The notes under the pieces: model-generated | Database searches by the model: none | What the model saw: only the letters and a program-made list of their open reading frames with translations | What the model was told of the DNA's origin: nothing | Part shown: piece by piece, positions 8,099 to 60,986 of the stretch | Position numbering within the stretch: the stretch's first letter is position 1 | Layout of the letters: each line of letters starts with the position of its first letter | Assembly: GCF_017592395.1 (NCBI RefSeq) | Contig: NZ_JAGFOU010000001.1 | Span: 1-64,000 of the forward strand | Source of the DNA: Actinomyces bowdenii | GTDB taxonomy: Bacteria > Actinomycetota > Actinomycetes > Actinomycetales > Actinomycetaceae | DNA: 64,000 nucleotides | Direction: 5' to 3' | Made by a program: the position numbers and the translations under genes

Positions 8099-9073
8099 AT
8101 GGACGAGGACATGCTCTCGCGGATCCGCGGCTGCTATGGGGCAGTGCGGGTGCGTGATCTCAGCCCGGACCGCACCGAGCGCCGGCGCCTCGCCGGGCTC
8201 ATCGAGGAGGGGCTGCTCGACGCCCACCTCCACGGAGTCGTCTCCATCCCCGGCACCGAGACCGCAATCATCCTGGCCCGTATCCACGGGGGTGTCATGA
8301 CCTGCCAGAGCGCTGCGGAGTACTACGGGCTGCCGCTCCCGTCAGGGACGCACCACATCCACCTGTCAGTGCCGCCGGGCTGGCGCATGCCCATCATCGG
8401 GAACGAGGTCGTCCATATTGAGCGCTCCTTGCCGCCGCCCTCCCCCACAGAGTTCCCGGTGGCTCCCCTGGCCCGCGCGCTCTCTCGATACCTCAGGTGC
8501 TCCTCGGATGCGGCGGCGCCCATCATGGCCTGCGATGCGGCACTGCACGCCGAGCAGGTGTCCCTGCAGCAGGTAGCGGATCTGCTCCATGGTCCAGGAT
8601 CCGTCGAGGCCCGGCGCCGCCTGCGCCGCACCAGCAGCCGCTGCCGCTCACCGCTGGAGAGCCTGGCGCGCCTCCAGCTCGAGGACGCGGGCATGGCAGT
8701 GGAGGTCGGTGTGGACATGAGCGATATCGGAGAGGTCGACCTGGTCGTGGACGGGTCCCTGGTCATCGAGCTCGACGGGTACCAGTTCCACTCCGACCGC
8801 AGGCAGTTCGCCAGGGACAGGTGGCGCGACCGGGAGCTGATGAAGCGCGGGATACCGGTAGCGCGCTTCACCAGGGCGGATGTGCTCGCCGGGCGGGTCG
8901 CACGGGAGGTCCCGGCGCTGCTGCGCGGCTCCGCAGTGTCCGGATCCCTTACAAACACCCCCAGCATGCCACCGCAACCGCATGAGAGGCCCGCCATTCC
9001 AACGCTCATGAAGAGCCGATCGGGCAACGATCCGCCCTTTGTGAGGAATCCGGACACCACAGGGCCCAGATGA
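8099..9073 (+). CDS. AbiEi-like N-terminus with DUF559 (Vsr-type) nuclease-fold C-terminus
   Basis: A 324-aa protein. The N-terminal 170 residues have the look of the actinobacterial AbiEi/type IV antitoxin-like proteins: a small DNA-binding region, then GVMTCQSAAEYYGLPLP and a HHIHLSVP segment. From about residue 195 the DUF559 domain follows, with EVDLVVDGSLVIELDGYQFH, an RDRWRDRELMKRGIPVARF segment and a final beta strand; this is the PD-(D/E)XK very-short-patch-repair fold, with Asp and Glu in EVDLVV/IELDG as probable metal ligands. Such single genes are common in Actinomyces. Whether the protein cuts DNA or has only a regulatory role is not known. It converges on pckG, with a shared terminator between them. 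Confidence 0.75.
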   Translation: MDEDMLSRIRGCYGAVRVRDLSPDRTERRRLAGLIEEGLLDAHLHGVVSIPGTETAIILARIHGGVMTCQSAAEYYGLPLPSGTHHIHLSVPPGWRMPIIGNEVVHIERSLPPPSPTEFPVAPLARALSRYLRCSSDAAAPIMACDAALHAEQVSLQQVADLLHGPGSVEARRRLRRTSSRCRSPLESLARLQLEDAGMAVEVGVDMSDIGEVDLVVDGSLVIELDGYQFHSDRRQFARDRWRDRELMKRGIPVARFTRADVLAGRVAREVPALLRGSAVSGSLTNTPSMPPQPHERPAIPTLMKSRSGNDPPFVRNPDTTGPR

Positions 9074-18019: not shown

Positions 18020-18205
18020 TGCACATCTTCAGCCCGCCCGCGGACGTGTCAGTGGCGAGATGACGCGGTTCCACCGGCCCTCCCAGCCTGCCGGCGCCCT
18101 GAAGATGTGCAGCGGGGGGCGCGTTGCACATCTTCAGGCCGCCGGCGGGCTGATGACCCCGGCTTCTCCGCATGATCACGTCAGCTCCCCACCCGAAGAT
18201 GTGCA
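18020..18205. repeat. GAAGATGTGCA motif array 1
   Basis: Four perfect 11-bp motifs in alternating orientation: TGCACATCTTC at 18020-18030, GAAGATGTGCA at 18101-18111, TGCACATCTTC at 18125-18135, GAAGATGTGCA at 18195-18205. Spacers are 70, 13 and 59 nt and differ in sequence from those of the other two arrays. The middle pair forms a hairpin. The array fills the gap between the methyltransferase gene and fba, about 120 nt upstream of the fba start. Confidence 0.9.
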
Positions 18206-19590: not shown

Positions 19591-19664
19591 ACTTTCGACA
19601 ATTTGCATGAGATCGGCCTTCTCCAGCGCTGGAAAAGGCCGATCTCATGCAAATTGTCGAAAGT
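19591..19664. repeat. 74-nt nearly perfect palindrome between tpx and pyrE
   Basis: Positions 19591-19620 and 19635-19664 are exact reverse complements (30 bp). The 14-nt centre contains the 12-bp palindrome TCCAGCGCTGGA at 19622-19633, so the whole element is a palindrome broken by a single mismatched pair (19621/19634). It begins 8 bp upstream of the pyrE -10 box and ends 6 bp before the tpx stop codon. The arms are A+T-richer than the surroundings. Confidence 0.95.
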
Positions 19665-22224: not shown

Positions 22225-22423
22225 CGCACATCATCGAGGAGGGGCCGAAGGGTGGATCCGCATGATCCTGCGGTTCATCAGGCCTGGATTCCACCCCTGG
22301 CCGATTGAAGATGTGCAACGAGGGCGGCGCCGCACATCTTCAGCCCAGCCCGGAGGAGCGATCCGACGGCATCATGCCGAAAAGTCAGGGCCGGCGGCTG
22401 ACCGGAGCGCCGAAGATGTGCAG
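22225..22423. repeat. GAAGATGTGCA motif array 2
   Basis: Motifs in alternating orientation: CGCACATCATC (degenerate, two changes) at 22225-22235, GAAGATGTGCA at 22307-22317, CGCACATCTTC (one change) at 22331-22341, GAAGATGTGCA at 22413-22423. Spacers are 71, 13 and 71 nt. The long spacers contain small hairpins of their own such as CCGCA...TGCGG and CGGCAT...ATGCCG. The array fills most of the 498-bp gap between convergent xth and the serine hydrolase gene, where I see no gene. Confidence 0.88.
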
Positions 22424-60789: not shown

Positions 60790-60986
60790 TGCACATCTTC
60801 AGAGGCCCTCCCCTGAGCGGAACCGCAGAATCCTGCGGATCTGCTCCCAGCGCCGGGTGCATCGCGGGCCGAAGATGTGCAGCGGGGCCCTCGTTGCACA
60901 TCTTCGGGCGCCTCCAAGGCGGGGTCAGATCCCAGAGCCTTGAAATCCTGAGGATCTGCGGCCTAGCACTGGCGCGAAGATGTGCA
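60790..60986. repeat. GAAGATGTGCA motif array 3
   Basis: Four perfect motifs in alternating orientation: TGCACATCTTC at 60790-60800, GAAGATGTGCA at 60871-60881, TGCACATCTTC at 60895-60905, GAAGATGTGCA at 60976-60986. Spacers are 70, 13 and 70 nt, the same architecture as array 2. The first spacer contains a CCGCAG...CTGCGG hairpin. The array fills the gap between the histidine kinase and ABC genes, where there is no gene. Confidence 0.92.

What the first reader, a model, noticed from the sequence alone, without database searches (positions are those of the whole stretch)
18020..18205. Array of alternating GAAGATGTGCA motifs with fixed spacing (array 1 of 3)
Seen: four perfect 11-bp motifs in alternating orientation separated by 70, 13 and 59 nt, upstream of fba. 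The same motif and layout recur at 22.2-22.4 and 60.8-61.0 kb with different spacer sequences. Conserved motif and spacing but variable spacers argue for a selected architecture, not a recent copy. The alternation of short and long linkers is reminiscent of the bacterial BIMEs (REP sequences), but I know of no element with this motif, and no RAYT-like transposase is seen here. Inference: a mobile or protein-bound palindromic element of this genus.
Basis: partly seen in the sequence, partly recalled or inferred. Interest (0 to 1): 0.75.

Follow-up and report, generated by a model that had tools for sequence, protein, structure and literature searches.

The report
Nuclease-linked DNA repeat arrays in Actinomyces
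Short mirrored DNA signals scattered between genes of an Actinomyces bacterium are spaced by whole turns of the DNA helix and also bracket a gene for a predicted DNA-cutting protein; related proteins carry their own matching signals, which points to an unrecognised repeat-and-enzyme partnership.

Summary
GAAGATGTGCA occurs 245 times in this genome (reversed control 0), typically in four-site arrays with a 13-bp core gap. Outer distances step by about one helical turn: mostly 70/81 bp here; 81, 92, 103, 114, 124 and 145 in relative G048 (37 distances, R 0.95 at 10.8 bp). The fba array sits at the same site in G048. At three such shared arrays all 12 arms match (6 cores were selected for that) while spacers look shuffled.

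No Y1/RAYT transposase was found. The likely partner is an AbiEi-like/Vsr-like nuclease gene bracketed by these arrays in G000 and G048; G003 lacks it, keeps one unit at its site and has fewer arrays. In the genus, 36 of 91 homologous loci tested carry one inverted-arm unit on both sides (random windows 3 of 743), with about twenty arm types; many loci are close relatives.

It works like REPIN/RAYT with a different enzyme, probably bridging phased sites. Binding, cutting and mobility are inferred; no structure could be computed.

The parts
18020..18111 (.). Array 1, unit 1 (92 bp): arms 18020-18030 (-) and 18101-18111 (+)
18112..18124 (.). Array 1, 13-bp core linker
18125..18205 (.). Array 1, unit 2 (81 bp): arms 18125-18135 (-) and 18195-18205 (+); this unit alone remains at the G003 site
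22225..22422 (.). Array 2: arms 22225-22235 (-, 2 mismatches), 22307-22317 (+), 22331-22341 (-, 1 mismatch), 22412-22422 (+)
60790..60986 (.). Array 3: two 92-bp units, arms 60790-60800 (-), 60871-60881 (+), 60895-60905 (-), 60976-60986 (+); retained in G003
8099..9073 (+). Paralog of the partner nuclease family (AbiEi-like plus Vsr-like); 52% identical to the GTGTCC-type nuclease of another species; not the cognate of arrays 1-3 in my reading
8936..9057 (.). Decayed GTGTCC-type inverted-arm unit (122 bp) overlapping the 3' end of the paralog

Best explanation
The array is a set of binding sites for the product of a nuclease-like gene elsewhere in the genome (P0001, G000:C1:276279-277226). Relatives of that protein show an AbiEi-like winged-helix N-terminal half, expected to bind inverted repeats, and the family has a Vsr-like PD-(D/E)XK C-terminal nuclease domain. 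Two protomers bind the inverted arms of a unit and bridge them over the intervening loop, so loop length changes by whole helical turns; two units meet across the 13-bp core gap. Units multiply by tandem duplication of unit plus linker, and units or the whole gene cassette are lost by unit-by-unit recombination, possibly started by nicks made by the nuclease. Shown: the arrays, the phasing, arm constraint at orthologous sites, bracketing of the gene in two species, precise presence/absence differences, and pairing of arm type with nuclease subfamily in the genus. Inferred: that this protein binds the arms (about 0.75), that it bridges them (about 0.6), and that its cutting drives duplication and spread (about 0.4).
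For: Arrays bracket the gene in G000 and G048. In the genus 36 of 91 loci tested carry the same inverted-arm unit on both sides; mismatched flank pairs give a mean of 1.4, maximum 9; random windows 3 of 743. Outside the genus 15 of 32 (part of 22 of 42; control mean 0.78, maximum 5). Proteins above 80% identity have mean arm similarity 0.92, below 60% 0.39-0.45; Mantel r 0.73, 0 of 2000 permutations. Phasing R 0.95 for 37 distances; for the 27 other than 81 R 0.93 against a null maximum of 0.675. Arms diverge 3/324, spacers 209/1261 between G000 and G003. Three arrays at shared G000-G048 sites with all 12 arms kept and spacers near the shuffled level. G003 has no homolog at E<=0.001 and one unit at the gene's site. 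E206, D233, E243, D245, H250, D259, R262 invariant in 91 of 91. Profile A3 matches endonuclease-like 3hrl at 5.5e-9 and mobile intron protein 3r3p at 0.0051. AbiEi models match a relative, L251, at 4.2e-7; AbiEi binds inverted repeats and bends DNA (PMC7319586 passages).
Against: No binding or cutting data and no structure. P0001 matches Pfam only below the curated cut-off (MTES_1575 E 0.0017) and no PADLOC AbiEi model; the more diverse profile A1 finds 3hrl only at 0.085. 55 of 91 loci showed no both-sided unit, and one of the 36 (L139) is low-complexity. Many of the 35 others are close relatives with syntenic flanks, so they are not 35 independent cases. Arms stay conserved in G003, which has no detected nuclease; G008 has 25 GTGTCC arm hits and no homolog at the threshold. 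The gene's locus shares its upstream neighbour in G000 and G048, so the G003 difference looks like loss; mobility of the gene is not demonstrated. Eight of eight units fold better than most shuffles as single strands, so recognition of a hairpin is not excluded.
Confidence: 0.6

Rival explanations
1. The arms are sites of an unrelated host architectural or regulatory DNA-binding protein that loops DNA; the nuclease gene merely lies between two of its arrays and is regulated by it.
For: Phasing, retention at orthologous sites, arms still conserved in G003, which lacks a detected nuclease, no tie to gene orientation.
Against: About twenty different arm types bracket different members of the same nuclease family; one unrelated host protein would not change its motif with the nuclease.
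Confidence: 0.2
2. A selfish REPIN-like repeat moved by the nuclease through a single-stranded hairpin, with no host role.
For: Inverted arms and stable predicted folds; unit copies whose similarity ends at the arms; tandem growth in direct orientation; dispersal of several arm types.
Against: Arms at orthologous sites are kept while spacers change; whole-turn loop lengths point to double-stranded sites.
Confidence: 0.15
3. A MITE family of an ordinary insertion sequence with TGCACATCTTC ends.
For: Terminal inverted repeats and discrete units.
Against: Only 11-bp ends are shared; no larger element with these ends was recognised in the loci read; no Y1 transposase. DDE transposases were not searched genome-wide.
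Confidence: 0.04
4. An RNA element such as a terminator or riboregulator.
For: Eight of eight units fold with z from -2.4 to -5.0.
Against: Convergent, divergent and tandem placement; loop length quantised at the DNA helical repeat; no Rfam match in the window except a tRNA.
Confidence: 0.03

Closest known systems
REPIN/RAYT systems (Bertels and Rainey 2011, PMC3116915; abstract and author summary read)
   Same: Inverted doublets of a short motif in extragenic space, paired by family with a nearby enzyme gene
   Different: Partner is a Vsr-like nuclease, not a Y1 tyrosine transposase; arm pairs at helically phased distances, 13-bp linkers between units, arrays kept at orthologous sites with only the arms conserved
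AbiEi / Rv2827c antitoxin operators (PMC7319586; abstract and passages read)
   Same: Proteins of the AbiEi family bind pairs of inverted repeats; AbiEi bends its promoter DNA; repeats within Rv2827c pairs are 13 bp apart
   Different: Those are promoter operators of a toxin-antitoxin operon; here there are dozens of intergenic arrays and the protein carries a nuclease domain
Vsr-type homing endonucleases (I-Bth0305I and the name EDxHD are recalled; structure 3r3p, 'mobile intron protein', matched)
   Same: Nuclease domain similarity; a nuclease gene in a repeat context
   Different: The gene is bracketed by multi-copy units rather than inserted in its own target; no intron was looked for at its locus
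BIMEs, Correia/NEMIS and other MITE-like repeats (recalled)
   Same: About 100-bp intergenic units with inverted ends and length classes
   Different: Here little beyond the arms is conserved, and the partner enzyme differs

Membership tests
REPIN/RAYT | Y1-family (RAYT) transposase in the genome | tested here: not met
   PF01797, 0 matches in G000; the same search found it in 5 of 14 control genomes
REPIN/RAYT | Inverted doublets over-represented in extragenic space | tested here: met
   placement by a home-made gene finder
REPIN/RAYT | Partner gene flanked by its own repeat type | tested here: met
   but the gene is nuclease-like
MITE of an insertion sequence | Full-length relative with the same ends and a transposase | tested here: inconclusive
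   none recognised in the loci read; Y1 absent; DDE families not searched
MITE of an insertion sequence | Target-site duplication at empty sites | tested here: inconclusive
   (L036 site in G003 diverged); searches show a direct repeat of one unit, more likely a deletion product in G003
AbiE type IV toxin-antitoxin | Antitoxin gene beside a DUF1814/AbiEii toxin gene | not tested
   neighbours of P0001 were not annotated
Vsr-like nucleases (MTES_1575/DUF559) | Profile match and conserved active-site residues | tested here: met
   MTES_1575 at E<=0.01 in 12 of 12 members of A1, DUF559 in 8 of 12; P0001 below the curated cut-off, DUF559 above it for L249 and L255; residues invariant in 91 of 91; 3hrl 5.5e-9
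Vsr-like nucleases (MTES_1575/DUF559) | DNA cleavage | not testable with these tools
   needs biochemistry
CRISPR | Direct repeats with near-constant spacers and cas genes | tested here: not met
   arms alternate in orientation and loops vary; cas genes were not searched

The most novel reading that the evidence does not exclude
A previously unrecognised class of bacterial repeat system: an AbiEi-Vsr-type nuclease with cognate inverted-arm units that has become a chromosome-wide network of phased DNA-bridging sites. Selection holds sites at fixed intergenic positions while the rest of each array turns over, and arm and enzyme specificity have diversified together into about twenty types in one genus.
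Probability: 0.4. Interest if true: 0.92.

Novelty: categorically new. Interest (0 to 1): 0.85.

Why it matters
The best-known enzyme partner of bacterial extragenic palindromic repeats is the RAYT transposase. This would be a second, independent class, built on a nuclease fold related to mismatch-repair and homing enzymes. Because arm motifs differ between subfamilies, it offers a natural series of enzyme-target pairs in one genus. The helically quantised spacing makes the bridging model directly testable, and arrays kept at orthologous sites with scrambled spacers are a clear sign that selection acts on these repeats where they stand.

Tried and rejected
RAYT partner: none. RNA element: 8 units folded, z -2.4 to -5.0; inverted arms by themselves give a stem, so this does not decide between DNA and RNA or single-strand models. 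Arm doublet elsewhere in the order: own genome only, 1 of 396 at <=2 mismatches (the draw had six other genus genomes but not G003 or G048). Motif in print: 22 papers hold one of the two 11-mers; 20 were listed, and by title none concerns repeats of Actinomyces (listing only). Paper searches with no paper. Searches whose listings showed nothing on this system: 6 papers; 3; 10 listed of 31; 4. The idea that 13-bp linkers are composed from the two outer flanks (L075, L046, L039) has only modest support over 65 arrays and is not claimed. The first thought that the nuclease cassette had inserted into a unit in G000 was dropped, since its upstream neighbour is shared with G048. Second palindrome family: the stretches between two pairs of its copies in G003 were read as ORFs; no nuclease of this family was noticed by eye.

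Structure prediction of A3 was asked for nine times; each time the machine was busy and no job was accepted, so no fold search was made.

Limits: G000 arrays come from contigs C1-C26 only, because one search lists the first 100 of 245 places and the first doublets: 46 arrays with at least two arms, in 43 fetched stretches plus the window. G003: 26 stretches of 20 kb and ten of about 4 kb. G048: 18 stretches around its exact doublets, so its core arms are exact by choice. Gene calls come from my own codon-usage script. The random windows overlap and come from the window and G003 only.

Full report
1. The observation. Four exact copies of GAAGATGTGCA lie at 18020-18205 in alternating orientation with gaps of 70, 13 and 59 nt. 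The window holds 11 matches at <=1 mismatch against 0.40 expected. The whole genome (G000, 3.10 Mb, 54 contigs) holds 245 exact copies; the pattern read backwards 0. The doublet GAAGATGTGCA-N13-TGCACATCTTC occurs 53 times exactly and 60 times at <=3 mismatches, reversed control 0. Array 2 is partly decayed, with two of its four arms imperfect.

2. Anatomy. The unit is TGCACATCTTC-loop-GAAGATGTGCA. Typical arrays have two units joined by a 13-bp linker; single units and triple arrays also occur. Arm start-to-start distances in the loci read: G000 70 (23 units), 80 (1), 81 (58), 82 (3), 103 (1); G003 70 (6), 75 (1), 81 (10), 82 (1); G048 81 (10), 91-93 (11), 102-104 (10), 114 (1), 124-126 (4), 145 (1) (any distance 60-149 allowed, at most one mismatch in the two arms together). 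For the 37 G048 distances the circular concentration is R 0.947 at 10.8 bp. The 27 distances other than 81 give 0.929, against at most 0.675 in 2000 random sets of 27. This is the signature of two protein-bound sites that must face each other on the double helix. One G003 array has a 12-bp core gap.

3. Inside the loops. Weaker motifs occur: CGACGGGATCATGCGGGAAAGTCGGGG in 70-type units and GAACCGCGGAATCATGCGGATC in 81-type units. The core CCGCATGATTCCGCGG (<=1 mismatch) is found in 43 of 49 genus genomes, reversed control 0 or 1 per strand; G048 has none. In many of the 30 core loci fetched it sits between other inverted arms.

4. Placement. By a home-made gene finder, 46 G000 arrays lie between tandem genes (21), divergent (14) and convergent (7); 2 overlap a predicted gene and 2 could not be placed. 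There is no tie to promoters or terminators. The gene beside array 1 is fba.

5. History against G003. Array flanks matched G003 at 78-98% identity (aside from short repeats). Of the 46 arrays, 31 could not be tested in the stretches fetched. Of 15 tested, 8 keep four sites, 4 have one unit, 1 is decayed, 1 is absent and 1 (L038, a single unit in G000) is unclear. In the eight, 29 of 32 arms are exact in G003. Six of the eight were in the exact-doublet list, so their cores are exact by choice. Over aligned columns divergence is 3 of 324 in arms, 209 of 1261 in spacers, 20 of 103 in linkers and 122 of 1268 in flanks (columns in poorly alignable surroundings were left out, which removes decayed arrays). 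At L043 the two genomes differ by 105 bp, one 92-bp unit plus linker. In L044 two units 1.27 kb apart are 98% identical inside and unrelated outside the arms. Where the two units of an array resemble each other they are in direct orientation, so arrays seem to grow by tandem duplication.

6. Shared sites with G048. Four of 19 G048 arrays share a site with one of the 46 G000 arrays: the fba array of this finding, L053/L101, L036/L102 and the nuclease locus below. At the first three all 12 arms are identical (132 bp), of which the 6 core arms were selected as exact and the 6 outer arms were not. Spacers and linkers align at 0.38-0.54 identity against 0.32-0.49 when shuffled (8 shuffles each). 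Loops changed from 70 to 81, 70 to 102, 70 to 92 and 81 to 145 bp, near-whole turns. L036 is the array that G003 lacks. Selection on the arms at a given place, with the rest free, is the simplest reading.

7. The partner gene. Pairs of arrays about 1 kb apart in G000 and in G048 bracket homologous genes. P0001 (316 aa) and P0002 are 69% identical. The other long genus hits reach at most 46%; a few fragments under 70 residues reach 46-47%. 40 of 49 genomes have some hit; G003 has none at E<=0.001. G003 has 10 exact doublets against 53 in G000 and 18 in G048. At the nuclease site G003 keeps one unit, with both outer flanks aligned, where G000 has unit-linker-unit-gene-unit-linker-unit. Because G048 shares the upstream neighbour, I read this as loss in G003 by recombination between the outer units; no downstream match was found between G000 and G048.

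8. The protein. All 12 members of alignment A1 match the Vsr-type MTES_1575 model at E<=0.01 and 8 match DUF559, but P0001 alone is below the curated cut-off. MTES_1575_REase is described as a Vsr-REase fold in PMC3710099 (passages). Profile A3 finds 3hrl (endonuclease-like) at 5.5e-9 and 3r3p (mobile intron protein) at 0.0051; the more diverse A1 finds them at 0.085 and 0.13; P0001 alone finds nothing. E206, D233, E243, D245, H250, D259 and R262 are invariant in 91 of 91 homologs. The N-terminal half matches AbiEi models in relatives (PADLOC 4.2e-7 for L251; Pfam AbiEi_4 above cut-off for L255) but not in P0001. AbiEi binds two 23-bp inverted repeats and bends DNA; Rv2827c binds four, with 13 bp between the repeats of each pair (PMC7319586, passages).

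9. A genus-wide pairing. I tested 91 loci from the hit list; the weakest and fragment rows were left out. In 36, one inverted-arm unit occurs on both sides of the gene (exact shared 9-mer). Flanks of different loci give a mean of 1.4 (maximum 9), and 3 of 743 overlapping random windows pass, two of these through the second palindrome family. One of the 36 (L139) is low-complexity and was dropped, leaving 35; L130, the G048 gene, is missed by this test and found by an 8-mer test. About twenty arm types occur, among them AGGTTTGAGGATT, GGGAGGATCGTTCG, TGTCCACAGAAATGACATT, GTGTCCAAATCNG, TGTCACGATCC and AAAAGGTGG. In 13 of 35 loci the core lies at the centre of both units with <=3 mismatches (20 of 35 with <=5; shuffled units average 6.1-7.0, lowest 3-5); the AGGTTTGAGGATT type lacks it. 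Arm similarity follows protein identity (Mantel r 0.73; 0.92 above 80% identity, 0.39-0.45 below 60%); shared descent contributes, and most loci above 80% identity have syntenic flanks. GTGTCC arms are dispersed in 31 of 49 genomes, up to 253 hits at <=2 mismatches, reversed control 0. Against strict pairing, G008 has 25 such hits without a homolog at the threshold. In a wider set, 22 of 42 loci pass (control mean 0.78, maximum 5); 10 of the 42 are genus loci (7 of the 22), leaving 15 of 32 outside the genus. Protein searches found no match in the phage collection and one A. oris plasmid, annotated hypothetical (E<=1e-5).

10. How it most likely works. Two nuclease protomers hold the inverted arms of a unit, the loop being set by helical phase; paired units form a four-site complex across the 13-bp gap. 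The conserved residues suggest an active nuclease, so nicking or cutting is expected, and unit duplication, unit loss and cassette loss would follow. What selection keeps at each site is unknown. Shown and inferred steps are separated in the explanation section.

11. Against this reading. No binding or structure data (nine structure requests met a busy machine); arms remain conserved in G003 without the gene; 55 of 91 loci lack a detected both-sided unit; mobility of the gene is not demonstrated; 8 of 8 units also fold well as single strands; an unrelated architectural protein remains possible (0.2).

12. Relation to known systems. It works like REPIN/RAYT (PMC3116915, abstract) but fails the membership test, since no Y1 transposase was found. 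I found no description of repeats paired with an AbiEi/Vsr-type nuclease, seen as listings; preprints and most subscription journals are not in that library.

Noticed in passing
window 19592-19663: A second repeat family: a 72-bp near-perfect palindrome (TTCGACAATTTGCATGAGATCG..CGATCTCATGCAAATTGTCGAA) with compensatory changes inside; 80 arm hits in G000, 79 in G003, 0 in G048. Two family relatives (L286, L287) have nuclease homologs bracketed by similar near-perfect palindromes.
   Followed up: partly
window 8099-9073 and 8936-9057: A paralog of the nuclease family in the window whose 3' end overlaps a decayed GTGTCC-type unit; the genome has 12 further arm hits of GTGTCC type at 2 mismatches, several reading TGTCCAGATCCCTGACAAAG.
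   Followed up: partly
L201 and L221: Nuclease loci 69% identical whose outer flanks match in crossed order, as if the cassette were inverted at one site.
   Followed up: no
L036:2018-2030 and 2228-2240: The two outer 13-bp flanks of this array are perfect inverted copies of each other.
   Followed up: no
L261, L262: Upstream of the gene lies a second short match to its own C-terminal coding end (74% and 70% over about 30 residues), as if gene-plus-unit cassettes had followed one another.
   Followed up: no
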